Positions 15,292 to 64,000 of a stretch of 64,000 nucleotides of DNA are shown piece by piece. Position 1 is the first letter of the stretch. Each line of letters opens with the position of its first letter. The stretch comes from Alteromonas pelagimontana (GTDB lineage Bacteria > Pseudomonadota > Gammaproteobacteria > Enterobacterales > Alteromonadaceae), in assembly GCF_002499975.2 (NCBI RefSeq), contig NZ_CP052766.1:1550001-1614000 (forward strand), written 5' to 3'. Both the position numbers and the translations under genes were made by a program. The notes under the pieces were generated by a model. The model was not told the DNA's origin and ran no database searches. It saw only the letters and a list, made by a program, of their open reading frames with translations.

Positions 15292-17062
15292 GCGATACAT
15301 ATTTAATAAAAAACTTAACCGTAGTGGCCGCAAATGGTACTGGTTAAGCGGTTCTGTTGTGATGTTGGTACTTTTTAAAGTTCTGGCAGAACCTGCCGTC
15401 GCTCAAACCGTTGAGCCGGTGCTACTTGATCCTTATTCACAGCAGCAAGCGCCATTTTCTTCTACTTTAATGGATATTCGTTTTAAGCGCCAAGGACAAA
15501 AGGTTGCGATCACCACCATCGAATTTAATAACGAAAAAAGCAAACCGCAGATAATTGAAGCGCAAGGTGAACTTACCGTTTTGCTTCCTGGTACTGAATT
15601 AGCGAACGATCAACTAGTAGAGCTTGATGTGGCGCAATTTGGCACAGCGGTATCAAGTATCGAAACTTTTCAGGATGAAACTGGCGCCCGCGTGATATTG
15701 CGGTACGAAGGGCAAGTGTTTGCGCGCCACAGTCAGGAAGATAAACTTGTTCGCGTTGAAATTGAACCCATGACCGCAGAAGACGTTAAAAAGCTTCAGG
15801 ATGACTCCAAATATACCGGTAATCCGATATCTCTGGATTTTCAAGATGTGCCCGTACGTCAGGTACTGCAAATTATTGCACAGGTAAACAGCTTTAATTT
15901 GGTAACCACCGATACAGTCACCGGCAATGTGACTATTCGTCTTTCTGGTGTGCCTTGGGATCAAGCGCTGGAAATGATTCTAAAAATTAAAGGATTGGAT
16001 AAGCGCTTGGAAGGAAATATTTTGCTTGTTGCTCCCACAGAAGAACTGACCGCCAGGGAAACTCAGCTACTGCAATCGAAAAAACAGGTTGCTGATCTGG
16101 CGCCGTTACGAACTGCAAACATTGTTGTGAATTATGCCAAAGCCGAAGCTCTAGCGAATATTTTAAAAACGCAGGAGGGAGGAATACTGACAGATCGTGG
16201 TTCCGTCACGGTGGATGAACGAACCAACACCGTGTTAGTAAGAGACACGCAGGAATCCATTGACGAAGCTCGTCTGATGATTACGGCCTTGGACGTGCCG
16301 GTAAAACAGGTATTAATTGAATCTCGTATGGTGACTGTGCGTGATAACGTGGGTGAGGAACTAGGCGTCCGCTGGGGTTTTACTGATCAGCAGGGCGATG
16401 ATGGCGTTTCAGGTTCTCTGGAAGGCGCGGGTACTGTCGCTGGCGGCGTTATTCCCTCACTTAACAACCGTCTTAACGTCAACCTTCCTGTAACCAATGA
16501 CTCCGCCGGTAGAATAGGATTTCAGGTAGCCAGCCTGGTCGACGGCACTATTTTAGATTTGGAACTGTCTGCACTTGAGTCTGAAAATAAAGGTGAAATT
16601 ATCGCGAGCCCACGCATTACTGTGGCAAACCAGCAAGAAGCCTATATTGAGCAAGGAACTGAAATTCCATACGTACAGGCCACTTCAAGTGGAGCAACGT
16701 CGGTAGAATTTAAAAAGGCAGTACTAAGTTTGACGGTAACGCCGCACATTACCCCCGATAACCGCATTATTTTAGATCTTGTTGTTACTCAGGATACTCG
16801 GGGCGACACGGTTCAGACCTCTACAGGCCCGGCAGTGGCTATCGACACGCAGGAAATAAAAACCCAGGTACTGGTGGAAAATGGCGAAACCGTGGTATTG
16901 GGAGGTATCTTCCAGCAGATAAACACCGATGATATTTCAAAAATACCGTTATTTGGTGATTTACCCGGAATCGGCGCTCTATTTAGAAACACTTCTACAA
17001 TCTCGCAAAAGCGTGAATTGCTGATATTTGTTACGCCAAAGATAGTCACCGAGAGCCTTTAA
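15284..17062 (+). CDS. pilQ: Type IV pilus secretin PilQ
   Basis: Outer-membrane secretin channel for the pilus fibre, 592 residues. The signal sequence has an unusually long N-terminal basic part, with cleavage likely after AVA near residue 40. Then come one AMIN peptidoglycan-binding domain (about 60-150), a secretin N0/STN domain near 180-230, an N1 domain, and the secretin core from about 340 to the end. The core includes the VPVKQVLIESRMV and LLIFVTPKIV signatures. It is shorter than the about 700-residue Pseudomonas protein, apparently because there is a single AMIN domain. It is the last gene of the pil operon. Confidence 0.95.
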   Translation: MSERYIFNKKLNRSGRKWYWLSGSVVMLVLFKVLAEPAVAQTVEPVLLDPYSQQQAPFSSTLMDIRFKRQGQKVAITTIEFNNEKSKPQIIEAQGELTVLLPGTELANDQLVELDVAQFGTAVSSIETFQDETGARVILRYEGQVFARHSQEDKLVRVEIEPMTAEDVKKLQDDSKYTGNPISLDFQDVPVRQVLQIIAQVNSFNLVTTDTVTGNVTIRLSGVPWDQALEMILKIKGLDKRLEGNILLVAPTEELTARETQLLQSKKQVADLAPLRTANIVVNYAKAEALANILKTQEGGILTDRGSVTVDERTNTVLVRDTQESIDEARLMITALDVPVKQVLIESRMVTVRDNVGEELGVRWGFTDQQGDDGVSGSLEGAGTVAGGVIPSLNNRLNVNLPVTNDSAGRIGFQVASLVDGTILDLELSALESENKGEIIASPRITVANQQEAYIEQGTEIPYVQATSSGATSVEFKKAVLSLTVTPHITPDNRIILDLVVTQDTRGDTVQTSTGPAVAIDTQEIKTQVLVENGETVVLGGIFQQINTDDISKIPLFGDLPGIGALFRNTSTISQKRELLIFVTPKIVTESL

Positions 17063-17231
17063 AATAAGGATTTTTTAAACAGGGTATAGGAAAGCCCCCT
17101 TTTTCTGCTTTTTCTGAAGCCTAACCCTTTGAAAAACAAAGAAGTACATTTTAAGCACAACAAAACTTGCATCGTTACACGGGAAACTGAGATAATCGCG
17201 CTCTCGAAATTTAAGCGAGGTTTTAGGCGTG

Positions 17232-17257
17232 GTGCTTATTGGCAAGTGAATAAGCAC
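17232..17257 (+). promoter_or_regulatory. Perfect 9 bp hairpin upstream of aroK
   Basis: GTGCTTATT (17232-17240) and AATAAGCAC (17249-17257) are perfect inverted repeats with an 8-base loop, 73 bp before aroK. No T-run follows. It could be an operator or an mRNA leader hairpin. Confidence 0.3.
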
Positions 17258-17329
17258 GAGTGAACGGGTGGTCAGAAACAGGCTAGACGCACTACCCTTA
17301 ACATTATAAAAGTTGTGATATAAGCAAAT

Positions 17330-17845
17330 ATGGCTGAAAAACGAAATATCTTTTTGGTTGGCCCAATGGGTGCAGGTAAAAGTACCATAGGCAGACATCT
17401 GGCAGACGAACTTCACCTCGAATTCTACGATTCCGATCAGGAAATCGAACGCCGCACTGGCGCAGACATCACATGGATTTTCGATTTAGAAGGTGAAGAT
17501 GGCTTCCGCAAGCGCGAAGAAACTGTCATCAATGATCTGACAGATAAACAAGGTATCGTGCTTGCCACTGGTGGCGGTTCTATCGTAACTAAAGCTGTTC
17601 GCAACCGTTTATCTGCACGCGGCATTGTTGTCTATCTACAAACCACAATTGATAAGCAAGTTGCTCGTACACAACGCGACAAGCGTCGCCCGCTGCTGCA
17701 AAAGGGTGACCCTGAGCAGGTGTTGCGTGATCTTGCTGATTCGCGTAATCCTTTGTACGAAGAAGTTGCAGATTACATTGTAGATACTGATGATCAGTCT
17801 GCCCGCGCAGTAGCAAATCAAATCATTAGTAAAATTGGTTTATAA
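17330..17845 (+). CDS. aroK: Shikimate kinase I
   Basis: Phosphorylates shikimate to shikimate 3-phosphate in chorismate biosynthesis. It has 171 residues, the normal length. The Walker A loop is GPMGAGKST (residues 11-19), the shikimate-binding DSDQEIE near 34 and the LATGGGS loop near 77. The lid region carries RDKRRPLL. The sequence is very close to E. coli AroK over its whole length. No strong Shine-Dalgarno precedes ATG 17330, but the start is fixed by the conserved [14 protein letters not shown]. It is followed 26 bp later by aroB, a conserved pair. Confidence 0.97.
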
Positions 17846-17871
17846 CTTATAACGAAGAAGGAGCTACGCGC

Positions 17872-18939
17872 ATGTCCCGTTTAACTGTAGAACTTGGGGA
17901 GCGTAGTTATCCTATTCACATTGAAGCCGGTCTGTTAAAGCAGACTGGCTTTTTTGCGTCTTATATAAAAGGCCCGCTGGCAGTCATTGTTACCAACGAC
18001 ACCATCTCTCCCCTTTACCTTGACGATATGATTGCGGCGTGTGGTGACAAGTCTGTTGAAGTCATCACCATACCTGACGGCGAGCAGTACAAGTCGCTTG
18101 AACAGTATGGCGTCATCATGACAAGGTTACTTGAAATGAATGCTGCCAGAGATACAACGCTTATTGCACTGGGTGGTGGCGTAGTGGGCGACCTTTGCGG
18201 CTATGTTGCCGCAACATATCAACGCGGAGTGCCCTTTATTCAGGTGCCCACCACCTTGCTTTCTCAGGTCGATTCTTCAGTAGGTGGCAAAACGGCAGTT
18301 AATCATCCGCTAGGCAAAAATATGATTGGCGCGTTCTACCAGCCCGTTCTGGTTGCCATCGATATTGCGACGCTTTCCACACTCCCGGCTCGAGAATTTG
18401 CTGCCGGTATGGCGGAAGTCATCAAATATGGCATTATTTACGACGCTTCCTTCTTTGATTGGCTGGAAAGCCACCATGATGCGCTGAACAGTTTGGACGA
18501 AAAGGCGTTAAAAGCAACCATTTTGCGATGCTGTGAGATTAAAGCCGATGTGGTAGCAAAAGATGAGCGGGAAGGCGGATTGCGTGCCATACTTAATTTA
18601 GGTCATACTTTTGGTCATGCTATTGAGGCAGAACAAGGGTATGGCAACTGGCTACATGGCGAAGCGGTAGCAGCAGGTACTGTTATGGCCTGTCATACTG
18701 CCATGCACCTGAACTGGATGAGCTCCGCGGAAGCGCTTCGTATTCAGGGACTGTTGGAAGCATTTGCGCTTCCTGTTACTGGTCCAGACAACATGGAGTA
18801 CGATGCTTACATTAAGCACATGCGCAGAGACAAAAAAGTGGAAGCCGGAAATATTCGCTTTGTGTTACCTCAGGGCATTGGAAAGGCTGTTGTCACCAAA
18901 GATGTGACTGAAAGTATTCTGCGGCAGGTTCTTCAATAA
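17872..18939 (+). CDS. aroB: 3-dehydroquinate synthase
   Basis: Second enzyme of the shikimate pathway, converting DAHP to 3-dehydroquinate with NAD and a divalent metal. It has 355 residues. Visible motifs are PDGEQYKSL (NAD region), [34 protein letters not shown] and the zinc ligands in [18 protein letters not shown] and [13 protein letters not shown] precedes the start. It is in an operon with aroK and is followed by the damX-like gene 56 bp later. Confidence 0.97.
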
Positions 18940-53376: not shown

Positions 53377-54372
53377 ATGGCACATCTTAAAAAAAGAGTG
53401 CTTATCGCCGGCGGGGCTGGATTTATAGGTACGAATCTAAGTCACCGGTTATTACGTGATGGCTACAAAGTTTTTTGTGTAGATAACTTTTCAAGCGGCA
53501 CCAAAGCCAACTTGTCATCTCACGAAAATTTCTTTCTTCTTGAACAAGACGTGGCGCAGCCGATAGACATTGATGTCGACTGGATTTTTAACCTCGCCTG
53601 TTGCGCTTCTCCCGTTCAGTATCAGGCAGACCCGCTCCAAACCATCCGTACTAATACTTTAGGCGTGGCAAATTTGCTGACGCTTGCCAGAAACTGTAAT
53701 GCCACTTTACTGCAAGCGTCTACCAGCGAAGTTTATGGTAATCCCAGTGTGCATCCGCAAACAGAAGATTATTTTGGCAACGTTAATCCTATCGGGCCCC
53801 GCGCCTGTTATGACGAAGGCAAGCGGTGCGCCGAAGCTACATGTATGGATTTTCATCGCACTTACGGCACACCTGTCAAAATTGCGCGTATTTTTAACAC
53901 CTACGGCCCAGGCATGCAGCCGGATGATGGCAGAGTAATTTCAAACTTTATTGTTCAAGCGCTGAAAAATGAACCTATTACGGTTTACGGCGATGGCAGT
54001 CAGACCCGGTCCTTCTGCTTTGTTGACGATCTGGTAGAAGGTTTGCTGGCGTTAATGTTCTCACCTTCGGATTTCGTTGGACCGGTAAATCTTGGTAATC
54101 CAGGCGAATTCACTGTAGAAGAACTCGCTCATCAGGTTATTGCCATGACCGGCTCTACATCAGAAATTGTTTATCACCCTCTTCCTACAGATGATCCTGT
54201 GCGGCGCAAACCGGATATCAATCGAGCAAAGGAAGCATTGGGTTGGAAACCACGTATTCCTCTTGAGAAAGGCCTTAAGAGCACAATCAGCTATTTTGAT
54301 GATTTGCTGGCGGTAAAAAGCGCTGTACGACGGGATGAAGAACCCGTTCTTATGCCCATTGCGACCGGTTGA
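53377..54372 (+). CDS. UDP-glucuronate decarboxylase-like SDR
   Basis: Extended SDR of 331 residues resembling UDP-xylose synthase (UXS). The cofactor loop is GGAGFIGTNL (12-21). The catalytic motif YDEGKR (near residues 147-152), with Thr/Ser in ASTSEVYGNP, is the UXS hallmark, and RIFNTYGPGMQPDDGRVISNF follows. It would make UDP-xylose from UDP-glucuronate, a precursor for the glycan. GGAGG precedes ATG 53377. It is the first gene of the cluster, with a 104 bp gap to the next gene. Confidence 0.85.
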   Translation: MAHLKKRVLIAGGAGFIGTNLSHRLLRDGYKVFCVDNFSSGTKANLSSHENFFLLEQDVAQPIDIDVDWIFNLACCASPVQYQADPLQTIRTNTLGVANLLTLARNCNATLLQASTSEVYGNPSVHPQTEDYFGNVNPIGPRACYDEGKRCAEATCMDFHRTYGTPVKIARIFNTYGPGMQPDDGRVISNFIVQALKNEPITVYGDGSQTRSFCFVDDLVEGLLALMFSPSDFVGPVNLGNPGEFTVEELAHQVIAMTGSTSEIVYHPLPTDDPVRRKPDINRAKEALGWKPRIPLEKGLKSTISYFDDLLAVKSAVRRDEEPVLMPIATG

Positions 54373-54476
54373 ATAACCCGTCGTTCACAGGGTAACAATA
54401 TTTGTTCGTTGTAAAACGGCGAGCGCATTCATTCTCGATCATTAATAAAAGCCTCTGAAAATTACTGGAGATAACA

Positions 54477-55589
54477 ATGAAGGATCGTATCCTCATAACA
54501 GGCGGTGCAGGTTTCGTAGGTTCACATCTTGCTGATCAACTGTTACAAGCCGGCTATAACGTTCGGGTTTTAGATAACTTGACTCCCCAGGTTCATGAAA
54601 CCAATGACTGGCCGGACTATCTTGACAAGCGAGTAGAGAAATTGCGCGGTGATGTGCAAGACATGGACGCCGTTACACAAGCTTTGGAAGATGTCGATGC
54701 CGTCTTTCATTTGGCGGCAGCGGTGGGTGTTGGGCAAAGCATGTACGAAATCTGTCACTACACGCAAACCAATAATGTTGGCACCGCGGTACTGCTGGAA
54801 GCGATAGCGAAAAAGCCTGTGAAAAAGCTGGTAGTGGCTTCCAGCATGAGTCTGTATGGCGAAGGTGCTTATTTGGACGAAAGTGGTAATACTGTTTTTC
54901 CACATGAACGGTCGCCGGAAGAGCTGAAGAAAAGCAATTGGGACCCCCGACTTAATGGGCAGGTTTTACGACCCATTGCTACTGACGAAAATAAGCTTCC
55001 CGCTCCTTCCTCAGTTTATGCATTATCCAAGTATGACCAGGAAAAGCTCTGTTTGATGGTAGGTGAAGCCTACAACATTCCCACCACAGCCCTGCGCTTT
55101 TTCAACATCTACGGCCCACGACAAGCACTGTCTAATCCTTACACTGGTGTGCTTGCTATCTTTTCGTCGCGCTATTTAAATGATCGTGCACCAGTAATTT
55201 TTGAAGATGGTCAGCAAAGGCGTGATTTTGTGAGCGTTCATGACATTGCCCAGGCCTGTGTAAAGGCACTGGAATCCGATGCCGCCAACGGACAAGTCTT
55301 TAATATCGGTAGCGGAAATAATTACTCTATTCTCGAACTGGCCGAAAAGGTCGCCGCTCAACTGGGCAAATCCCATCTCACACCGGAAGTGTGCGGAGAA
55401 TATCGGGTAGGAGATATTCGCCATTGCTTCGGTGACATCAGCAAAGCGGAAAAGCTGCTGGGTTACCGCCCCCAGGTTTCATTAGAGCAAGGGTTGGACG
55501 AGCTTGCTCAGTGGCTGCAAAAACAAAGCGCCAATGATCGCGTTGACAGCATGCGTAGCGAGTTATCCAGCAGGGGGTTGAGCAGATGA
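54477..55589 (+). CDS. NAD-dependent nucleotide-sugar epimerase
   Basis: Extended SDR of 370 residues. The cofactor loop is GGAGFVGSHLADQ near 9-21. Catalytic Tyr/Lys are in SVYALSKYDQEK, with Ser in VVASSMSLYGEG. An insertion before the Tyr motif (residues about 140-178) resembles dTDP-L-rhamnose 4-epimerases, but the substrate is not certain. The stop overlaps the following fusion gene by ATGA, so the two are translationally coupled. Confidence 0.78.
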   Translation: MKDRILITGGAGFVGSHLADQLLQAGYNVRVLDNLTPQVHETNDWPDYLDKRVEKLRGDVQDMDAVTQALEDVDAVFHLAAAVGVGQSMYEICHYTQTNNVGTAVLLEAIAKKPVKKLVVASSMSLYGEGAYLDESGNTVFPHERSPEELKKSNWDPRLNGQVLRPIATDENKLPAPSSVYALSKYDQEKLCLMVGEAYNIPTTALRFFNIYGPRQALSNPYTGVLAIFSSRYLNDRAPVIFEDGQQRRDFVSVHDIAQACVKALESDAANGQVFNIGSGNNYSILELAEKVAAQLGKSHLTPEVCGEYRVGDIRHCFGDISKAEKLLGYRPQVSLEQGLDELAQWLQKQSANDRVDSMRSELSSRGLSR

Positions 55590-57679
55590 GAGAAGAAAAC
55601 GCCAATAACTCCCCCGCTCTGGGGGTACTGGAATGGCTGCGACCTGGAGAGCACGAAAGAGCCTTAGCGCTAATTAAAGATCTTCGTAAATTAAATATCA
55701 AGTATCTGCGCACAGGCCTTTCCTGGGCCGATTGGCACACTGAAGAAGGTCGTGAATGGTTTCGCTGGCTAGTGCCCACGCTGGCAAAAGAGGTGCAGAT
55801 TCTTCCATGCTTTACCTACACACCGCCGTCAATCGGCATTGAAGAAAAGACCTCGGCACCGCCCCGGGATATTTCTTACTACGTTCACTTTGTTGAAACC
55901 ATGATCAACGACTATGACGAACATTTTTCGTGGATCGAACTTTGGAACGAACCGAATAACCTCAATGATTGGGACTGGCACCTGGATCCTAACTGGGAAA
56001 TTTTCAGTGAAATGATCACCATGGCAGCCAAGCGCGCCCGGGAAATGGGGAAAAAGACGGTATTAGCAGGCATGTGTCCTACCGATCCCAATTGGCTTAG
56101 TTTGATGTGTGAGCGCGGCGTAGTTCAGAATTTCGACGCTGTTGGTATTCATGGTTTCCCCGGTACCTGGGAGTTCACTCAAGAAACCTGGGCCGACAAA
56201 ATCCGTCAGGTAAAAGAAGTACTGGATTACCACCAGCTTAAGCCCGAAGTATGGATAACCGAAGTTGGATATTCCACCTGGCGACATGACGAAATTATTC
56301 AGGTTAAAAAATTCATTGAAGTGCTTGAAGCACCTGCAGATCGGATTTACTGGTACTGCGGCTATGATCTTCACCCTTATGAAAGCCATCAGGATGGTTT
56401 TCACGAAGATGAACGCCACTATCACTTTGGTTTGAAAACGGCAGACGGGACGCCAAAACTTATTTACCGCATTTGGGAACAAAGTGGCATCGATGGGTTG
56501 CGGAAACTGTCGCAGTCGGTTTTTGACAGCGGTGCTGGTTTAAAACGTGCGCCGACTAACGGCCCGCGGCCACAAATTTCCAAAGCCTCCAGCTCGTCTC
56601 GAAACGAAAAGCCAGTGCTAATCACCGGCGGCGCGGGTTTTGTGGGTACCAACCTCGCCAAGCATTTACTTAACGAAGGCAAACAAGTCTTGATTTTCGA
56701 TAATCTCGGCCGCGCTGGCGTTGAGCAGAATCTTGAATGGCTGTGTGACGAATTTGGCGATCAGGTACAACTGGAAATCGGCGATATTCGCGATGCTCAT
56801 CTGGTGCGGGATGCCGTTGACCACGCTTCTCAGGTTTATCATTTCGCCGCTCAGGTGGCGGTGACTACCAGCCTTGACAGCCCAGAATACGATTTCGATA
56901 TTAACTTGCGCGGCACGCTGAATGTTCTGGAGTCCATGCGCCGACTGTCGTCGCCACCGCCCTTGCTGTTTACCTCGACCAACAAGGTGTACGGCGCGCT
57001 TGAAAACGTGGAGCTGGAAATGCGGGGCGAAAGGTATGTTCCCAAAGCGACCCAGTTTCAAAATGGCGTGAGCGAACAGCAGCATCTGGATTTTCATAGT
57101 CCGTATGGATGTTCAAAAGGCGCTGCAGATCAATACGTACTGGATTATGCCAGAAGCTACAACCTCCCTGCTGTCGTTTTCAGAATGAGCTGCATTTACG
57201 GTGAACATCAGTTTGGCACTGAAGATCAAGGATGGGTAGCTCACTTCCTGCTGCAAGCGCTACGGAATAAACCGCTGACCATTTACGGGGATGGCTGTCA
57301 GGTTCGTGATGTGCTGTATGCGAAAGACTTAATTAACGCTATGACTACCGCGCAGGCAAATATTCAGCAGCTTTCCGGGCGCGCCTTCAATATCGGCGGC
57401 GGCAAGGCCAATGCAATCAGTTTACGGGAATTATTAAGCCGGCTGGAAGCATTGACTGGCGTAAAACCAGATTGCCGGTTCGACGATTGGCGTCAAGGCG
57501 ACCAAAAATATTATGTCTCTAATACTAGCGCGTTCGAAAAGGCCACTGGCTGGAAACCTCAAGTCGGCATTGAAGAAGGGCTCGCTAATATGCGCTTATG
57601 GATCGAACGAAACACTTCTTATTCCCCATTAAACCTGCAATTGGCTAAAAAAGGAGTTGACCATCATGCAATTGCTTGA
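55586..57679 (+). CDS. Fusion: glycoside-hydrolase-like domain plus tyvelose-epimerase-type SDR
   Basis: A 697-residue two-domain protein. Residues about 10-310 form a clan-A TIM-barrel glycosidase-like domain, with the acid/base candidate Glu122 (WIELWNEPNN) and nucleophile candidate Glu226 (VWITEVGYST), both present. A Ser/Pro-rich linker covers 313-342. Residues 343-685 are an SDR close to CDP-paratose 2-epimerase (Tyv): GGAGFVGTNLAKH, STNKVYG, SPYGCSKGAADQY with Tyr507 and Lys511, and TEDQGWVAHF. No signal peptide is present, so the glycosidase domain would act in the cytosol. It overlaps both neighbours (ATGA upstream, 14 bp downstream). I know of no named function for this arrangement. 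Confidence 0.85.
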   Translation: MREENANNSPALGVLEWLRPGEHERALALIKDLRKLNIKYLRTGLSWADWHTEEGREWFRWLVPTLAKEVQILPCFTYTPPSIGIEEKTSAPPRDISYYVHFVETMINDYDEHFSWIELWNEPNNLNDWDWHLDPNWEIFSEMITMAAKRAREMGKKTVLAGMCPTDPNWLSLMCERGVVQNFDAVGIHGFPGTWEFTQETWADKIRQVKEVLDYHQLKPEVWITEVGYSTWRHDEIIQVKKFIEVLEAPADRIYWYCGYDLHPYESHQDGFHEDERHYHFGLKTADGTPKLIYRIWEQSGIDGLRKLSQSVFDSGAGLKRAPTNGPRPQISKASSSSRNEKPVLITGGAGFVGTNLAKHLLNEGKQVLIFDNLGRAGVEQNLEWLCDEFGDQVQLEIGDIRDAHLVRDAVDHASQVYHFAAQVAVTTSLDSPEYDFDINLRGTLNVLESMRRLSSPPPLLFTSTNKVYGALENVELEMRGERYVPKATQFQNGVSEQQHLDFHSPYGCSKGAADQYVLDYARSYNLPAVVFRMSCIYGEHQFGTEDQGWVAHFLLQALRNKPLTIYGDGCQVRDVLYAKDLINAMTTAQANIQQLSGRAFNIGGGKANAISLRELLSRLEALTGVKPDCRFDDWRQGDQKYYVSNTSAFEKATGWKPQVGIEEGLANMRLWIERNTSYSPLNLQLAKKGVDHHAIA

Positions 57680-58670
57680 CGCCCTCGCCCGCAAGCTACC
57701 TGAACAACAAATGCAGCAACGCGCAGCAATAGTCGGCGCACCAGCAACAGTTTCGGTAGAAGAACGTGAAATTGCTGCTCCTAAAGCCAACGAACTGCTA
57801 ATCAAAGTAGAAGGTTGTGGAGTGTGCGCTTCAAGCCTGCCTGATTGGCAGGGCCGGGAATGGACAAAGTACCCGCTCCCGCCGGGTAATCCTGGACACG
57901 AACCTTGGGGCCGGGTTGTTGAGTGTGGTTCTGAGGTTGGCGGCTTTAAGCCAGGGCAGCGAGTTGCTTTTTTGACTGAAAATGGGTTTGCCGACTATGA
58001 CTGTACCGACGCTTCACAAGCGGTTCTACTACCGGATGAGCTCGAAGGTCGCCCTTTTCCCGGCGAGGCCATTGGCTGTGCCATGAATATCTTTCGCCGC
58101 GCCGATATTCAGGCCGGTCAAGATGTGGCTATTGTAGGTGCTGGCTTTCTCGGCTTGCTGCTAGTTCAGTTGGCCGTGGGAGCAGGAGCGAACGTCCACG
58201 TGCTTTCCCGACGGCAGTTTGCCCGAGATAAAGCGCTGGAATTCGGAGCCACCACAGCGCTGGATACCGAAGATTGGTGGGGCAACGCCTGCAAAATTGT
58301 TGAGAAAACCAACGGTGTGGGATGCCAGCGCGTGATTGAAGTCACAGGCTTACAGTTTGCCTTAGATACCGCCACCGAAATGATTGCCGAGTACGGCAAA
58401 CTTATTATTGCTGGCTTTCATCAGGATGGGCTGCGCCAGGTCAATATGCAAACCTGGAACTGGCGCGCAATTGACGTAATCAACGCCCATGAGCGGGCGC
58501 CAGAGCGTTATGTTGAAGGCATGCGTGCGGGCATAAAAGCCACTCTTGGTGGCAGGATATCACCCGAATCAGTACTGACTCATAAATTTTCGTTAGCAGA
58601 AGTGGATAAAGCGTTTTCTATGATGGAAGAACGACCCGATGGATTTATTAAAGGATGGATTGAGCTATGA
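57666..58670 (+). CDS. Zinc-type alcohol dehydrogenase without structural zinc lobe
   Basis: Medium-chain dehydrogenase of 334 residues. Catalytic zinc ligands are Cys in GCGVCASSLPDW and His/Glu in NPGHEPWG. The Rossmann loop is VGAGFLGLLLVQLAVGAGA. The four-cysteine structural zinc cluster that normally follows the catalytic loop is missing. ATG 57666 lies nine bases after AAGGAG; the in-frame TTG three codons earlier would touch that site. It probably oxidises or reduces a sugar hydroxyl in the glycan pathway. Confidence 0.82.
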   Translation: MQLLDALARKLPEQQMQQRAAIVGAPATVSVEEREIAAPKANELLIKVEGCGVCASSLPDWQGREWTKYPLPPGNPGHEPWGRVVECGSEVGGFKPGQRVAFLTENGFADYDCTDASQAVLLPDELEGRPFPGEAIGCAMNIFRRADIQAGQDVAIVGAGFLGLLLVQLAVGAGANVHVLSRRQFARDKALEFGATTALDTEDWWGNACKIVEKTNGVGCQRVIEVTGLQFALDTATEMIAEYGKLIIAGFHQDGLRQVNMQTWNWRAIDVINAHERAPERYVEGMRAGIKATLGGRISPESVLTHKFSLAEVDKAFSMMEERPDGFIKGWIEL

Positions 58671-59692
58671 CGTTAGCCGCAGTAATGGATGCCCCGCCCG
58701 CCACAAGCGTAAAACCACGGCTGGGATTTATAGGAACTGGCTGGATAGGTCAGTTGCGCATGGAAGCGCTGGCAAATAGCGGCCACGCTGAAATTGCCGC
58801 GATTTGTGACTCTCATCAGCAGAACGCGCTTGAGGCCCAAAAAAAGTGTGCACAGGATGCTGAGGTAACAACTTCTTTGGAAGAACTTCTTACTCATGAT
58901 CTTGATGGTGTAGTCATCGCCACCCCAAGCGCGCTCCATAAAGAACAATGTTTAGCCGCCCTGGCCGCTAAAAAAGCGGTGTTTTGTCAAAAGCCTCTGG
59001 CGCGCACGAGCGACGAAACCACGGCTGTCATTGAAGCGGCTCGCAATGCCGACAGGCTCCTCGGCATCGACTTTTCCTATCGCTATCTTGATGGCGTGAA
59101 GAAAATGCGCGAACTGATCAACAGCGGCGAGCTAGGTGAAATTTTCAGTGTTGAGCTGGTGTTCCACAACGCGTACGGCCCCGACAAGCCTTGGTTTTAT
59201 GACTTCTCCCGCTCAGGCGGCGGTTGTGTTATTGACTTAGGCATTCATCTAATCGACCTGGCGCTTTGGCTGCTGGGACCCAACGAGATACGTGGCTTAT
59301 CCAGTCACTTATATAAGGGAGGTAACCGTCTCCAAACTCCGATTAACGATGTTGAAGACTATGCCAATATTGGCTTCCAGCTGGGCAATTGCGATGTACA
59401 GCTAGGCTGCTCATGGAATTTACATGCAGGCCAGGATGCGGTCATTAGTGCTCGCTTTTTTGGCACCCAAGGAGGCATGGAGCTTCGCAATGTGAATGGA
59501 TCTTTCTTTGATTTTGAGACTTTTCATTTGCGAGGAACCCAGCGCAATCAATTAGCCAGCTTTCCCGAAGATTGGGGCGGTCGCGCCTTATGTCATTGGG
59601 CTCAGCAACTGGGTACCAGTCCTCGCTTTGACGCTGAAGTAGAGCAAGTTGCCACGGTTGCTCAAATCATCGACAGGATCTATCAGCGATGA
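58667..59692 (+). CDS. Gfo/Idh/MocA family oxidoreductase
   Basis: NAD(P)-dependent sugar oxidoreductase of 341 residues. The Rossmann loop is GFIGTGWIGQLRME (near 19-32). The usual EKP motif appears as CQKPLART, retaining the Lys. The catalytic D-x-x-x-H stretch is in GGGCVIDLGIHLIDLALWLLG. It overlaps the dehydrogenase upstream and the GT4 gene downstream by ATGA. Together with the zinc dehydrogenase it suggests a two-step oxidation/reduction of a nucleotide sugar. Confidence 0.85.
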   Translation: MTLAAVMDAPPATSVKPRLGFIGTGWIGQLRMEALANSGHAEIAAICDSHQQNALEAQKKCAQDAEVTTSLEELLTHDLDGVVIATPSALHKEQCLAALAAKKAVFCQKPLARTSDETTAVIEAARNADRLLGIDFSYRYLDGVKKMRELINSGELGEIFSVELVFHNAYGPDKPWFYDFSRSGGGCVIDLGIHLIDLALWLLGPNEIRGLSSHLYKGGNRLQTPINDVEDYANIGFQLGNCDVQLGCSWNLHAGQDAVISARFFGTQGGMELRNVNGSFFDFETFHLRGTQRNQLASFPEDWGGRALCHWAQQLGTSPRFDAEVEQVATVAQIIDRIYQR

Positions 59693-60843
59693 AGATACTG
59701 ATGACCGCTGACACCGTCGGCGGAGTTTGGACCTATGCAATTAGTCTTTGTCGTGCGCTCAATCAGTTAGGTGTGGAGGTAGGTCTTGCCACCATGGGTG
59801 CGCCAATGACAGAGCAGCAGCGCCGACAATCGGCACAGCTAAGCGCAACAACAATATTTGAAAGCAATTTTCGACTGTGCTGGATGGAAGACTCGGAACA
59901 GGATGTAAACGCAGCTGCCCAGTGGCTATTGGAGCTGCAAGAGGAATATAAACCGGATCTCGTACACTTGAATGACTTGGCGCATGGGGATCTCAATTGG
60001 CATGCACCAGTGTTGATGGTGGTTCACTCTTGCGTTTATACCTGGTGGCAAGCCACGCTGGGTCGTGATCCTGATGAACAGCGCTGGAAGCAGTATAAAT
60101 CAATGGTGACTGCAAGTGCGCAATCAGTCGATACGTTAGTTGCGCCTACTTATGCAATGTTGAATAGCTTTCAAAACGTATACGGTTCCGTTCGTCGCTC
60201 ACAGATAATTTATAACGGCCGGGATTGGCCAGCCTTGCCCGCGAGTGACACCAAGCCCATTCTGGAAGAACCTCAGAACATTCCCTCAGCGCCCTACATT
60301 TTTGCCGCGGGTCGACTGTGGGATCAAGCTAAAAATCTGGCTCTGCTTGCCAGCATCAGCGCTGATTTGAGCTGGCCGGTATATGTCGCCGGGCAAAGCG
60401 AGGATCCCAACGGCGGCAGTGCTGAATTTGAAAATGTGCACTGTCTGGGAATGCTGGCAGAAGACCAACTGGCACCATGGCTTTACCAAAGTCAGATATA
60501 TGTCGCCCCTGCCTTTTATGAGCCTTTTGGTCTGGCTATTTTAGAAGCAGCGCGCGCGGGAAATGCGCTGGTACTAAGCGATATTCCGAGCCTGCGAGAA
60601 GTCTGGGAAGATGCAGCAACCTATGTGAATCCTCATGATGCGCAGTCTTTAAACACCGCGTTAGCATCACTAACCGACGACCCCGAGCTACGCCGCTTAC
60701 AAGCTGCGAAAGCCCAGCGCCGAGCGGCTCGTTATAGCGAAAGCGCTATGGCGCAAGGCTACTATGATACTTATCACCAGATGTTAACTAGTCGCCATTC
60801 ACCGTCTAAAACGTCTTTTGCTTCTGCTGGAGTAACTTTATGA
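59689..60843 (+). CDS. GT4-family glycosyltransferase
   Basis: GT-B glycosyltransferase of 384 residues. The N-terminal half starts MKILMTADTVGGVWTYAISL, typical of glycogen-synthase-like GT4 enzymes. The C-terminal half carries the donor-binding E-x7-E motif EPFGLAILEAARAG (near 282-290). The donor and acceptor are unknown. It is cytosolic or membrane-associated. ATGA overlaps link it with the oxidoreductase and the first CgeB gene. Confidence 0.87.
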   Translation: MKILMTADTVGGVWTYAISLCRALNQLGVEVGLATMGAPMTEQQRRQSAQLSATTIFESNFRLCWMEDSEQDVNAAAQWLLELQEEYKPDLVHLNDLAHGDLNWHAPVLMVVHSCVYTWWQATLGRDPDEQRWKQYKSMVTASAQSVDTLVAPTYAMLNSFQNVYGSVRRSQIIYNGRDWPALPASDTKPILEEPQNIPSAPYIFAAGRLWDQAKNLALLASISADLSWPVYVAGQSEDPNGGSAEFENVHCLGMLAEDQLAPWLYQSQIYVAPAFYEPFGLAILEAARAGNALVLSDIPSLREVWEDAATYVNPHDAQSLNTALASLTDDPELRRLQAAKAQRRAARYSESAMAQGYYDTYHQMLTSRHSPSKTSFASAGVTL

Positions 60844-61997
60844 ATTTTGTGCTTTTTTACCATTCTCTGGTTTCCGACTGGAATCACGGCAACGCGCACT
60901 TTTTGCGCGGCGTTGTCACTGAATTACTAGCTAAAGGACATACGGTAACAACCTATGAACCTGCTGATAGCTGGAGCAAAGCTAACTTAGTTAAAGATCA
61001 TGGCGAGCAACCGCTAAAGGAGTTCAGCCAGCACTATCCCAATCTAAGCAGTATTCAATATGACAAAAATTCGTTGGATCTCACTCAGGCCACAGATAAC
61101 GCTGATGTGGTTATCGTACACGAATGGAATGAAGACTGGCTGGTAAATGGCCTGGGCAAAGTGAGAAAAACCAATCCAGCTTTTCGCCTGCTATTTCACG
61201 ATACCCATCACCGCGCCATTAGCGATCCTAACGGCATAAAAGCTTTCGAGCTTGAATATTACGATGGCATTCTTGCTTTCGGTGAGGTGCTAAGCGAAGT
61301 GTACCGGCAGCACGGGTGGCATAATCAGGTGTGGACGTGGCATGAGGCTGCTGATACCAATGTATTCTACCCTCACCAGCCAAGCGACGATATTGTAAAG
61401 GGAGATGTAGTTTGGGTGGGCAACTGGGGCGACAATGAGCGCACTCAGACATTGCAGGAATTTCTGTTTCAGCCCACGCAGGAACTTAAATTGACCACCA
61501 ATATCTTTGGTGTTCGTTATCCTCCGGAAGTTCTGACTAAACTGAAAGCCTGGGAGATCAAGTATCACGGCTGGCTAGCCAACTTTCGCGCGCCCGACGT
61601 CTTTGCCAATCATCGGATGACGGTGCACATTCCACGTAAATTCTATACCGAACAGCTTCCGGGTATTCCTACCATTCGCCCTTTTGAAGCTATGGCTTGC
61701 GGTATTCCGCTAATTTGCGCCCCCTGGGAAGATGCTGAAAATCTGTTCACTCCAGGCGAAGATTATCTTGTTGTCAAGAATGGCGACCAGATGCAAAAAG
61801 CCATGCAAGCGCTACTGAATGATGACGACTATGCTGCTGAAATGGCGCAACATGCCCTGAACACCATTCTCTCTGGCCACACCTGCGCCCACCGCGTCGA
61901 CCAATTATTAAAAATTTGCAACAGTATGGATGTGAAACCTCGCAGCCTCAGTACGCCCCGTGATTCACAATTGCTTACTCAGGAAACTTATCTATGA
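60840..61997 (+). CDS. CgeB-family glycosyltransferase 1
   Basis: A 385-residue protein of the CgeB/Glyco_trans_1_2 group. The N-terminal half has YHSLVSDWNHGNAHFLRGVV and RGVVTELLAKGHTVTTYEP. The C-terminal donor-binding half has TIRPFEAMACGIPLICAPWED (near residues 281-301). CgeB proteins are best known from Bacillus spore coats, where they are thought to add sugars. Here three in a row suggest stepwise addition of different sugars. ATGA overlaps with both neighbours. Confidence 0.8.
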   Translation: MNFVLFYHSLVSDWNHGNAHFLRGVVTELLAKGHTVTTYEPADSWSKANLVKDHGEQPLKEFSQHYPNLSSIQYDKNSLDLTQATDNADVVIVHEWNEDWLVNGLGKVRKTNPAFRLLFHDTHHRAISDPNGIKAFELEYYDGILAFGEVLSEVYRQHGWHNQVWTWHEAADTNVFYPHQPSDDIVKGDVVWVGNWGDNERTQTLQEFLFQPTQELKLTTNIFGVRYPPEVLTKLKAWEIKYHGWLANFRAPDVFANHRMTVHIPRKFYTEQLPGIPTIRPFEAMACGIPLICAPWEDAENLFTPGEDYLVVKNGDQMQKAMQALLNDDDYAAEMAQHALNTILSGHTCAHRVDQLLKICNSMDVKPRSLSTPRDSQLLTQETYL

Positions 61998-63088
61998 AAT
62001 TAAACATCGCGTTTTTTGGTTCGAGCTTGGTGTCATCTTACTGGAATGGCGCCGCAACCTATTACCGTGGCATCATTCGTGCCCTTGCCGAACGCGGCCA
62101 CACAGTGACATTTTACGAACCCGATGCGTTTGATCGCCAGAAGCACCGTGATATGGAAGATCCTTCCTGGGCACGGGTCAGGGTGTATCAACCTACCGAA
62201 GAAGCAGCTCTGGCGCAGCTAAAAGAAGCAGCGAAGGCTGACATTGTGGTAAAAGCCAGTGGCGTGGGCGTGCTTGATGAATGGCTGGAGCAAGCAGTGT
62301 TGGAATATTGTGGCGATAGCACCACAATATTTTGGGACGTTGATGCGCCAGCCACGCTGGCACGGGTAAAAGAGAACGCCAACGACCCCTTTCGTGAGTT
62401 AATTCCGGAATATGACATGGTCTTAACCTATGGTGGCGGCAATCCGGTTATCGACGAATACACCAAGCTGGGCGCGCAATATTGCCAGCCTATTTATAAT
62501 GCGCTGGATCCCTCTACTCACCACCCGGTAGAACCGGATTCACGATTTAGCTCCGCACTGTTAGGGTTCTTGGGAAATCGTCTACCCGATAGAGAAGCCA
62601 GAGTGAAAGAGTTCTTTTTTAAGCCTGCCCAGCAGTTGCATGATAAGCAGTTTTTGTTAGGAGGCAGCGGATGGGAAGATGTTGCGCAAACCATTCCTAA
62701 TTTAGATTACGCCGGTCATATTTATACTCGGGATCACAATGCCTTTAACTGTAGCCCGCTGGCGGTACTTAATATCAACCGTGACAGTATGGCAGCAACA
62801 GGATTCTCACCCCCTACCCGGGTTTTTGAAGCCGCCGGAGCCGCAGCCTGTCTGATCATGGACTATTGGCAAGGTGTAGAACAATTTTTAGAGCCAGACA
62901 CCGAAGTATTGGTTGCCCGAAATGGTGATGAAGTCACTGCACACCTGCAAAATTTGTCGGTAGAGCGAGCTAAGAGCATTGGTCAGGCGGCGCGAGCGCG
63001 CGTGCTGGCAGAGCATACTTATAGTCATCGCGCAGAACAATTCGAGCAGATTATGAAGGCCGAACGCACCAGTCGTGCCTATGTATAA
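61994..63088 (+). CDS. CgeB-family glycosyltransferase 2
   Basis: A 364-residue paralogue of the preceding gene, with the same layout. FGSSLVSSYWNGAATYYRGII is at the N-terminus, a D-V-D-A-P motif (IFWDVDAPATLARV) in the middle and TRVFEAAGAAACLIMDYWQG near 275-294. It shares the mid-protein DIDTP/DVDAP motif with the third copy rather than the first. It is translationally coupled to the first by ATGA. Substrate unknown. Confidence 0.8.
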   Translation: MKLNIAFFGSSLVSSYWNGAATYYRGIIRALAERGHTVTFYEPDAFDRQKHRDMEDPSWARVRVYQPTEEAALAQLKEAAKADIVVKASGVGVLDEWLEQAVLEYCGDSTTIFWDVDAPATLARVKENANDPFRELIPEYDMVLTYGGGNPVIDEYTKLGAQYCQPIYNALDPSTHHPVEPDSRFSSALLGFLGNRLPDREARVKEFFFKPAQQLHDKQFLLGGSGWEDVAQTIPNLDYAGHIYTRDHNAFNCSPLAVLNINRDSMAATGFSPPTRVFEAAGAAACLIMDYWQGVEQFLEPDTEVLVARNGDEVTAHLQNLSVERAKSIGQAARARVLAEHTYSHRAEQFEQIMKAERTSRAYV

Positions 63089-63106
63089 AAGAGTAGAGGG
63101 TAATTT

Positions 63107-64000
63107 GTGAAGCAACTAAATATTGTTTTTTTTGGCTTATCTATCACCTCTTCCTGGGGCAACGGACATGCTACTACATTTCGCAGTCTGATTAAGGCAT
63201 TAAACCGGCGCGGCCACCAGGTGACATTTTTTGAAAGAGATGTTCCCTGGTATGCCAATCATCGGGATATGCCAGAGCCAGCATTTTGTCAAACCGTGCT
63301 TTACCAGGAACTGGCTGAACTGGATAAACATCGGGAATTAATAAATGATGCCGATTTTATTATTCTCGGTTCATACACTCCCGATGCCGCTGCACTGACT
63401 GATCTTATTGAGAAGGTATCAGCTCCGTGTTTTGCCTTTTATGACATCGACACTCCGGTCACGCTTGCCAAATTGGCAAAAGAAGAATGTGAATATCTCA
63501 CTGCGGATGATATCTCGCGTTTTGATCTCTATCTGTCTTTTACCGGCGGGCCTACTCTTGAATTTTTAGAGCAGAAGTACGGCGCGCGCTGTGCCAAGCC
63601 GCTGTATTGCTCTGTTGATCCCGAACTTTACTATCCTGAAAAGGATACGGAGCGCAAATATGACCTCGGCTACCTTGGTACCTACAGCGATGATCGGCAG
63701 CCGACGGTAGAAGAATTGCTGCTACAGCCTGCGCGCCAGCAATCGTCGCTACAAATGCATGTTGCCGGAGCACAGTATCCTGAAAGCGTAAGCTGGCCTG
63801 CCAATGTATTACACAGCGAACATATTCCGCCTCACTTGCACCGCCATTTTTATAATGAACAGCGTTTTACTCTCAACGTAACCCGACAGGATATGATCCG
63901 CGCGGGATATTCCCCCAGCGTACGACTGTTTGAAGCTGCCGCTTGCGGCACGCCAATCATCAGTGACGTGTGGTCCGGTATTGATGAGTTCTTCAGCATT
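63107..64000 (+). CDS. CgeB-family glycosyltransferase 3 (3' end outside window)
   Basis: An open frame of 298 codons with no stop, running off the right edge. GTG 63107 follows AGAGGG. The protein starts MKQLNIVFFGLSITSSWGNG, has YDIDTPVTLAKLA in the middle and ends SVRLFEAAACGTPIISDVWSG, so it is a third CgeB-type enzyme, closest in layout to the second. The gap from the second gene's stop is 18 bp, the only junction after the second epimerase without overlap. Roughly 70-90 residues are missing at the C-terminus. Confidence 0.82.
   Translation, partial: MKQLNIVFFGLSITSSWGNGHATTFRSLIKALNRRGHQVTFFERDVPWYANHRDMPEPAFCQTVLYQELAELDKHRELINDADFIILGSYTPDAAALTDLIEKVSAPCFAFYDIDTPVTLAKLAKEECEYLTADDISRFDLYLSFTGGPTLEFLEQKYGARCAKPLYCSVDPELYYPEKDTERKYDLGYLGTYSDDRQPTVEELLLQPARQQSSLQMHVAGAQYPESVSWPANVLHSEHIPPHLHRHFYNEQRFTLNVTRQDMIRAGYSPSVRLFEAAACGTPIISDVWSGIDEFFSI

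What the first reader, a model, noticed from the sequence alone, without database searches (positions are those of the whole stretch)
53377..64000. Uncharacterised, tightly coupled glycan cluster with three tandem CgeB-type glycosyltransferases
Nine rightward genes combine a UXS-like decarboxylase, two epimerase modules, a glycosidase-epimerase fusion, two redox enzymes, one GT4 and three CgeB-family enzymes. From 54477 to 61997 every junction overlaps by 4-14 bases. No flippase or polymerase is seen inside the window, so the product could be a soluble or lipid-linked oligosaccharide, or a protein or surface-layer modification. CgeB enzymes are known mainly from spore-forming bacteria, and a marine gammaproteobacterium makes no spores. 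This is the strongest candidate system in the window.
Basis: partly seen in the sequence, partly recalled or inferred. Interest (0 to 1): 0.78.

Follow-up and report, generated by a model that had tools for sequence, protein, structure and literature searches.

The report
Conserved ten-gene glycan synthesis cassette
A row of about ten enzyme genes, shared by distantly related bacteria but with no product that I could find described, looks like a factory for a small, methyl-capped sugar chain that probably stays inside the cell and may help it survive stress.

Summary
The operon runs past the window end: a tenth gene, methyltransferase TIGR04290 (64224-64991), then an 86-aa ORF (65015-65275). 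Orthologous cassettes lie in records of cyanobacteria, Desulfobacterota, Bacteroidota, alpha- and gammaproteobacteria. Within the window's family only its own genome has TIGR04290 (1 of 15 sampled).
Three regularities: (1) a dehydrogenase pair (ADH+Gfo) or a B12 radical-SAM enzyme (TIGR04295): 19 versus 30 of 50 loci, one truncated locus with ADH alone, none with both; at least seven switches on the tree. (2) The glycosidase is fused to a CDP-tyvelose-2-epimerase-type domain, or stand-alone and circularly permuted, mostly beside inositol-phosphate synthase. (3) The 86-aa protein lies within 16 kb of the cassette in 14 of the 18 cassette genomes that have it (27 searched).
Best reading: cytosolic synthesis of a short, O-methylated, pentose-containing oligosaccharide, stress-associated in relatives (EcfG-like promoters, DUF892 neighbours). 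Product, acceptor and role are unproven. The spore argument fails: PF13524 occurs in 14 of 14 control genomes.

The parts
53377..54372 (+). g1, UDP-glucuronate decarboxylase (UDP-xylose synthase type)
   Evidence: 371 bits to human UXS1 (4gll), 70 bits to plant UDP-apiose/xylose synthase 6h0p. Seen in 36 of 50 cassette stretches.
54477..55589 (+). g2, NAD-dependent epimerase of the 4-epimerase type
   Evidence: Best PDB matches are UDP-sugar 4-epimerases, 159 bits (4zrm); below the cut-off of every NCBIfam model shown.
55586..57679 (+). g3, fusion: glycosidase-like barrel (about residues 10-315) + CDP-tyvelose 2-epimerase-type domain (about 340-680)
57657..58670 (+). g4, Zn-dependent alcohol dehydrogenase-like oxidoreductase (start may be 57666)
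   Evidence: ADH_N and ADH_zinc_N; best NCBIfam IolM 94 bits, cut-off 450, so not that enzyme.
58667..59692 (+). g5, Gfo/Idh/MocA oxidoreductase
   Evidence: PF01408, PF22725; best NCBIfam IolG 117 bits, cut-off 355; best PDB DgpA, 99 bits.
59689..60843 (+). g6, GT4 glycosyltransferase
   Evidence: PF13439, PF13692; PDB matches PimA 40 bits, MshA 25 bits.
60840..61997 (+). g7, CgeB-type glycosyltransferase 1
   Evidence: PF13524 123 bits; own clade, support 1.0.
61994..63088 (+). g8, CgeB-type glycosyltransferase 2
   Evidence: PF13524 129 bits; own clade, support 1.0; model pLDDT 89.8 with GT-B matches.
63107..64000 (+). g9, CgeB-type glycosyltransferase 3; runs on to 64207. Beyond the window end, same strand: g10, methyltransferase TIGR04290, at 64224-64991 (G000:C1:1614224-1614991), and the 86-aa companion at 65015-65275 (G000:C1:1615015-1615275)
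   Evidence: g9: PF13524 126 bits, own clade, support 0.99, full ORF. g10: 321.6 bits, cut-off 300, seen in 41 of 50 cassette stretches. Companion; no Pfam or NCBIfam match.

Best explanation
The operon makes a short, capped hetero-oligosaccharide (or small glycoside) in the cytoplasm. Proposed route: UDP-GlcA is decarboxylated to UDP-xylose (g1; family shown, activity inferred). The NDP-sugar is epimerised at C4 (g2, inferred) and C2 (g3 C-domain; family shown, substrate unknown), giving one or more rare pentosyl donors. GT4 (g6) starts the chain and three distinct CgeB-type enzymes (g7-g9) each add one residue, which would fix the length at about four sugars (inferred). The pair g4+g5 oxidises and re-reduces one ring carbon, the same step that a B12 radical-SAM enzyme does in other bacteria (inferred from the swap). 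TIGR04290 (g10) O-methylates and so caps the product (inferred). The glycosidase domain trims or recycles it (inferred). With no evident membrane segment in the cassette and no exporter recognised to its right, the product most likely stays inside; in relatives it is probably made under stress. Many relatives add inositol-phosphate synthase and a phosphatase, which suggests an inositol acceptor or cap there; the window's genome has no such synthase, so its acceptor must differ or be taken up.
For: Enzyme families. No evident membrane segment in g1-g10 by a simple hydropathy scan; the highest window (2.28) lies in g4, where a Rossmann strand-helix is expected. Three CgeB groups form three clades and all three are present in 45 of 50 stretches. 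Same cassette in records of several phyla. ADH+Gfo or TIGR04295, never both: 19, 30 and one truncated of 50, nine ADH-Gfo loci in the slot that TIGR04295 uses, at least 7 changes on the tree. NCBI's own short name for TIGR04295 is B12_rSAM_oligo. Stress link in relatives: DUF892 within 20 kb in 7 of 25 genomes, 0.44 expected; EcfG-like sites 49 in 426 kb against 15 in 400 kb of control.
Against: No substrate, product or mutant is known. g1 was not seen in 14 of 50 stretches and g10 not in 9 of 50, so UDP-xylose supply and methylation may come from elsewhere or not be universal; some stretches are cut short. Polysaccharide pyruvyl transferase stands beside some cassettes, exopolysaccharide genes lie near the Rhizobium etli copy and ExoD beside the window's: all these hint at surface glycan. 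The window's own locus has no EcfG-like site, its DUF892 gene is 0.5 Mb away, and it has no Mn catalase, so the stress link is not shown for this organism. In L047 the second catalytic Glu is replaced and in three fused proteins (G859, G721, G714) the exact WNEPNN motif was not matched.
Confidence: 0.5

Rival explanations
1. Surface glycan: the cassette builds a repeat unit or a decoration of LPS, capsule or exopolysaccharide, and lipid carrier, flippase and polymerase are encoded elsewhere in the genome.
For: ExoD is the divergent neighbour; pyruvyl transferase stands beside the cassettes of Paracoccus, S. meliloti and G382; exopolysaccharide genes lie about 10 kb from the R. etli methyltransferase; the glycosidase resembles PslG, an enzyme of an exopolysaccharide locus (its role is recalled).
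Against: No flippase, polymerase or initiating membrane transferase is named in the annotated cassettes that I looked at or was recognised right of the window. I did not search the whole genome for them. The core is the same in several phyla, unlike O-antigen loci, which vary between strains (general knowledge).
Confidence: 0.25
2. Secreted or signalling natural product: the cassette makes a glycosylated small molecule or cofactor, for example an inositol- or cyclitol-based glycoside, that is exported or used as a cofactor and is not a protectant.
For: In 22 of 50 stretches inositol-phosphate synthase and a histidine phosphatase stand beside the cassette; that of S. meliloti scores 557 bits to the mycothiol-type INO1 model, below its cut-off of 638; g6 matches PimA and MshA weakly; radical-SAM, methyltransferase and dehydrogenase genes are common in natural-product loci (general knowledge).
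Against: No INO1 in the window's genome and in 18 of the 21 other fused-type genomes searched; no carrier-protein, resistance or dedicated exporter gene noticed within the annotated cassettes.
Confidence: 0.15
3. Protein glycosylation: the chain is put on a protein, perhaps on the 86-aa companion itself.
For: The companion is single copy in 17 of the 18 genomes that have it (two matches in G617) and lies beside the cassette in 14; it is inside the operon in Xanthomonas, Luteimonas and a Bacteroidota MAG.
Against: The companion was not found in 9 of 27 cassette genomes. I noticed no flagellin, S-layer or oligosaccharyltransferase gene in the annotated loci, without a family search.
Confidence: 0.08

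Closest known systems
Mycobacterial 3-O-methylmannose polysaccharide (MMP) cluster (PMC9883506; abstract and section list seen)
   Same: A small gene cluster in which glycosyltransferase, methyltransferase and a glycosidase make a methylated glycan; a glycosidase that recycles the product is the model for g3N.
   Different: MMP is a mannose polymer made by one mannosyltransferase and an alpha-endomannosidase. Here there are four GTs, dedicated NDP-sugar enzymes, a redox pair or a radical-SAM enzyme, and a GH-A-like barrel. I did not compare the sequences.
CDP-tyvelose (CDP-paratose) 2-epimerase, PDB 1orr and 9rl0
   Different: Fused to a glycosidase-like domain in 28 of 50 stretches. I saw no sign of CDP-sugar enzymes in the cassette; its substrate is unknown.
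Bacterial apiose operon of Xanthomonas pisi (PMC6193724, PMC5607165; part 1 of 6 of each read)
   Same: A Xanthomonas glycan operon that starts from UDP-GlcA decarboxylation.
   Different: That operon has a UDP-apiose synthase with a GT90 and a GT2 enzyme; here g1 is far closer to UXS than to UAS and the GTs are GT4 and PF13524.
NCBIfam TIGR04290 and TIGR04295 families
   Same: The curators defined both; g10 is a member of TIGR04290, and relatives carry TIGR04295. The name B12_rSAM_oligo suggests that the curators saw a sugar context.
   Different: Both are 'hypothetical equivalogs' without function, and no paper in the open library names either.
PslG (PDB 5bx9, 4zn2)
   Same: Closest solved sequence to the g3 glycosidase domain, over most of the barrel (E 1.2e-5).
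   Different: Weak similarity; here the domain is fused to an epimerase, or stand-alone and permuted.

Membership tests
UDP-xylose synthase (g1) | Closest to characterised UXS rather than to UAS, ArnA or epimerases | tested here: met
   371 bits UXS; 135 bits next different enzyme (4zrm); ArnA up to 85; UAS 70
UDP-xylose synthase (g1) | Makes UDP-xylose from UDP-GlcA | not testable with these tools
   Needs an enzyme assay
CDP-tyvelose 2-epimerase family (g3 C-domain) | Sequence and fold nearest to TyvE | tested here: met
CDP-tyvelose 2-epimerase family (g3 C-domain) | Acts at C2 of a CDP-sugar | not testable with these tools
   Substrate unknown
TIGR04290 methyltransferase (g10) | Score above the curated cut-off | tested here: met
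   321.6 against 300
CgeB-type glycosyltransferases (g7-g9) | PF13524 over the gathering score | tested here: met
   123-129 bits, cut-off 25
Spore-coat CgeB function | Domain restricted to spore formers | tested here: not met
   Over cut-off in 14 of 14 control genomes
Wzx/Wzy-type O-antigen or capsule locus | Flippase and polymerase in or beside the locus | tested here: inconclusive
   None recognised by eye in 46 kb to the right; left side and whole genome not scanned
MMP-type cytosolic methylated glycan cluster | GT, methyltransferase and glycosidase together | tested here: met
MMP-type cytosolic methylated glycan cluster | Sequence relatives of ManT, MmpH and MeT enzymes | not tested
   Analogy of gene content only; not filed as a member
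Bacterial apiose operon | UDP-apiose synthase as closest relative of the decarboxylase | tested here: not met
   371 bits UXS against 70 bits UAS
Mycothiol-like inositol glycoside pathway | Inositol-phosphate synthase in the genome | tested here: not met
   PF01658: 0 matches in G000; met in relatives such as S. meliloti

The most novel reading that the evidence does not exclude
A hitherto undescribed class of soluble, O-methylated pentosyl oligosaccharide, spread by horizontal transfer across at least four phyla, acts as an intracellular stress protectant. One stereochemical step in its synthesis is done interchangeably by an oxidation-reduction enzyme pair or by a B12 radical-SAM epimerase, and its glycosidase exists in two natural circular permutations, one of them tied to an inositol branch.
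Probability: 0.3. Interest if true: 0.85.

Novelty: new variant of a known kind. Interest (0 to 1): 0.62.

Why it matters
If right, many environmental and plant-associated bacteria, among them the model Sinorhizobium meliloti (its CgeB2-to-methyltransferase part lies at 242403-246460 of pSymB of strain 1021), make an unrecognised intracellular glycan. The cassette would give a function to two orphan NCBIfam families (TIGR04290, TIGR04295), predicts a redox pair and a B12 radical-SAM enzyme that replace each other, offers naturally circularly permuted glycosidase barrels for study, and ties a small orphan protein family to a pathway. All of it can be tested in a genetically tractable, harmless host.

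Tried and rejected
CgeB as a spore marker: rejected. Apiose glycan: rejected by g1 scores and by the gene content of the apiose operon. Inositol acceptor made by the window's own organism: weakened, no INO1 found. My first INO1 probe, PF07994, was unsuitable: the S. meliloti-type INO1 matched PF01658 and not PF07994; one search replaces it. 'Fused glycosidase excludes INO1' holds by blastp per locus (0 of 28 fused loci) but not per genome: G721, G859 and G963 have INO1, and in G859 it lies in the same 46-kb stretch, too diverged for my blastp reference.

S. meliloti literature: locus tags that I guessed from memory gave no papers; 'find' in four papers on S. meliloti gave no such tags (the tags sought may be wrong), and one on Ensifer aridi gave inositol catabolism only. 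The searches on MMP and on circular permutation gave analogies only. The fold search of g3 was filled by its epimerase half, so the glycosidase was judged from sequence. Mn catalase beside the cassette: 2 of 25 genomes, too few to lean on.

Not done: a scan of the window's genome for flippase and polymerase genes; naming the organism; searches of Desulfobacterota and Bacteroidota genomes.
Full report
OBSERVATION. One search shows nine rightward ORFs at 53377-64000 with the overlaps described. The window is G000:C1:1550001-1614000 of a 4,314,189-bp contig. To its right, g9 ends at 64207, a TIGR04290 methyltransferase follows at 64224-64991 and an 86-aa ORF at 65015-65275. Next come minus-strand genes: DUF421/YetF, a DUF326 Cys-rich protein and an SDR. 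To the left lies a divergent ExoD gene.

DISTRIBUTION. The search for related loci with g3 gave 13 loci whose titles name Desulfobacterales/Desulfobulbaceae, Xanthomonas, Luteimonas, two cyanobacteria, a Bacteroidota MAG, alphaproteobacteria and an unclassified proteobacterium. The methyltransferase hits 171 plasmid records, 133 of them over at least 80% of its length; the weakest include CmoB. Genome samples: TIGR04290 over cut-off in 14 of 398 genomes of the phylum, and in 1 of 15 of the window's family, its own; 15 of 337 in the class of G071. CgeB2: 5 of 274 in the window's class, its own included, and 2 of 194 in the phylum of the cyanobacterium G962, itself included. Core proteins are mostly 50-75% identical to the nearest reference, GT4 down to 36%. 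On a tree of four core proteins from 47 loci (quick method, SH-aLRT only) the window's cassette is sister to the two Desulfobacterota loci (100*; best identity 65%), which suggests horizontal transfer.

HOW CONSTANT THE SET IS. Of 54 stretches that I annotated by blastp, 50 hold g2 or the g3 epimerase. In these 50, all three CgeB types are seen in 45, the methyltransferase in 41, UXS in 36. Some stretches are cut by contig ends, so the numbers absent are upper bounds. Some loci are near copies (three of Tistrella type, two Xanthomonas, two Bradyrhizobium), so counts are not independent.

SWAP 1. Of the 50, 30 have TIGR04295 and neither dehydrogenase, 19 have ADH+Gfo and no TIGR04295, one truncated locus (L043) has ADH only, none has both or neither. 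TIGR04295 stands alone between the g3 epimerase and GT4 in 25 loci and with one more gene in 4; ADH-Gfo stands there in 9, among them the window; in 10 nothing stands between and ADH/Gfo lie elsewhere in the stretch. All 30 TIGR04295 proteins hold a CxxxCxxC motif. The label changes at least 7 times on the tree, 6 of them forced by starred branches. I infer that both do one step, most simply inversion of a ring carbon; B12 radical-SAM enzymes do other chemistry too, so this may be wrong.

SWAP 2. In 28 of 50 stretches the glycosidase is fused to the epimerase; in 21 a stand-alone glycosidase sits with inositol-phosphate synthase (INO1) and a histidine phosphatase; G457, cut short, shows INO1 and phosphatase but no glycosidase. 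The label changes 5 times on the tree. The stand-alone form is a circular permutation: with a profile of the fused form, the 24 intact stand-alone proteins match twice in reversed order (profile ~115-295 first, then ~8-112). Two further fragments match once: L057 is cut by the locus end, and L054 is a piece of a split fused gene. The stand-alone proteins carry the WNEPNN motif near their start by alignment. INO1 genome-wide: absent from 19 of 22 fused-type genomes, the window's among them; G721, G859 and G963 have it; G1030, whose glycosidase I did not type, lacks it; three INO1-type controls were found. G721 and G859 hold a fused-type cassette and, apart from it, a module with permuted glycosidase, phosphatase, methyltransferase and INO1. 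So the inositol branch looks like a module of its own.

THE 86-aa COMPANION. Of 27 cassette genomes searched 18 have it, and in 14 of these it lies within 16 kb of a cassette gene (0.15 expected within 20 kb); the exceptions are G265, G539, G714 and G778. The four same-genus genomes without the cassette lack it. It lies between CgeB3 and the methyltransferase in Xanthomonas and Luteimonas, between Gfo and GT4 in a Bacteroidota MAG, and after the methyltransferase here. By tblastn at E 1e-6 it is in 20 of the 53 other stretches and, at E 1e-3, in 0 of 20 control stretches.

STRESS LINK. Annotated neighbours in plasmids include Mn catalase, DUF892, DUF1003, YsnF, Ku/LigD, TreZ and DUF4142. I then tested two of these families by place in 25 cassette genomes: DUF892 lies within 20 kb of the methyltransferase in 7 (G171, G283, G384, G411, G481, G539, G645; 0.44 expected, p 4e-7), Mn catalase in 2 (G283, G384). 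N16+N17 sites number 49 in 426 kb of 14 loci against 15 in 400 kb of 20 control stretches from the same genomes (p 4.9e-5); two control stretches hold 11 of the 15, and two of the 14 loci hold none. The window's locus has no such site. So the stress role is supported for relatives and only inferred here.

MECHANISM AND LIMITS. The best reading and its rivals are given in their sections. Shown: gene content, families, swaps, permutation by sequence, companion. Inferred: substrates, order of steps, O-methylation as cap, cytosolic product, stress function.

LITERATURE. Searches for TIGR04290, TIGR04295, rhizo-twelve (a name I recalled), CgeB clusters, S. meliloti tags and enzyme combinations showed no description of the cassette in the listings from the open PMC library; most subscription papers are not held, so it may be described there. 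Seen: part 1 of 6 of PMC6193724 and PMC5607165; abstract and section list of PMC9883506; passages of PMC3616915 and PMC8877191; 'find' without a hit in PMC6180224, PMC12239276, PMC2651895; listings for the rest.

Noticed in passing
L063:13880-14956; also G315, G426, G539, L048, L049, L051, L053: A bacterial DNA topoisomerase IB gene (Pfam match for the L063 copy) lies in or near the cassette in 8 of 54 stretches by blastp, inside the operon before the methyltransferase in Tistrella.
   Followed up: partly
L058:187-1149, L060:15732-16685 and 22 further stand-alone proteins: Natural circular permutation of a glycosidase barrel, cut just before the strand with the WNEPNN motif. My one search for such cases in clan GH-A listed none that I recognised as the same.
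   Followed up: yes
L047:10001-12070: In the Bacteroidota copy the second catalytic Glu of the glycosidase domain is replaced by Ala (ITASG instead of ITEVG).
   Followed up: no
L059:20399-22833; L103:103-2578; G382: Polysaccharide pyruvyl transferase and a coenzyme-F420-hydrogenase-like gene stand together beside some INO1-type cassettes.
   Followed up: no
L060:13059-14971 and 16673-17878: INO1-type cassettes of rhizobial type carry a fourth PF13524 enzyme and a nucleotidyltransferase, in Bradyrhizobium also a phosphopentomutase: perhaps a salvage route to an NDP-pentose.
   Followed up: no
G000:C1:1616229-1616558 (right of the window): DUF326 Cys-rich four-helix protein with a sub-threshold match to the Csp1 copper-storage family (36.9 bits, cut-off 100), next to a YetF-type gene.
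   Followed up: no
L010:8052-11786: About 34 kb right of the cassette: a GT4-like ORF, a heptosyltransferase-like ORF and a possible outer-membrane capsule-assembly ORF, named by eye; only a PF13524 match to the first was computed.
   Followed up: no
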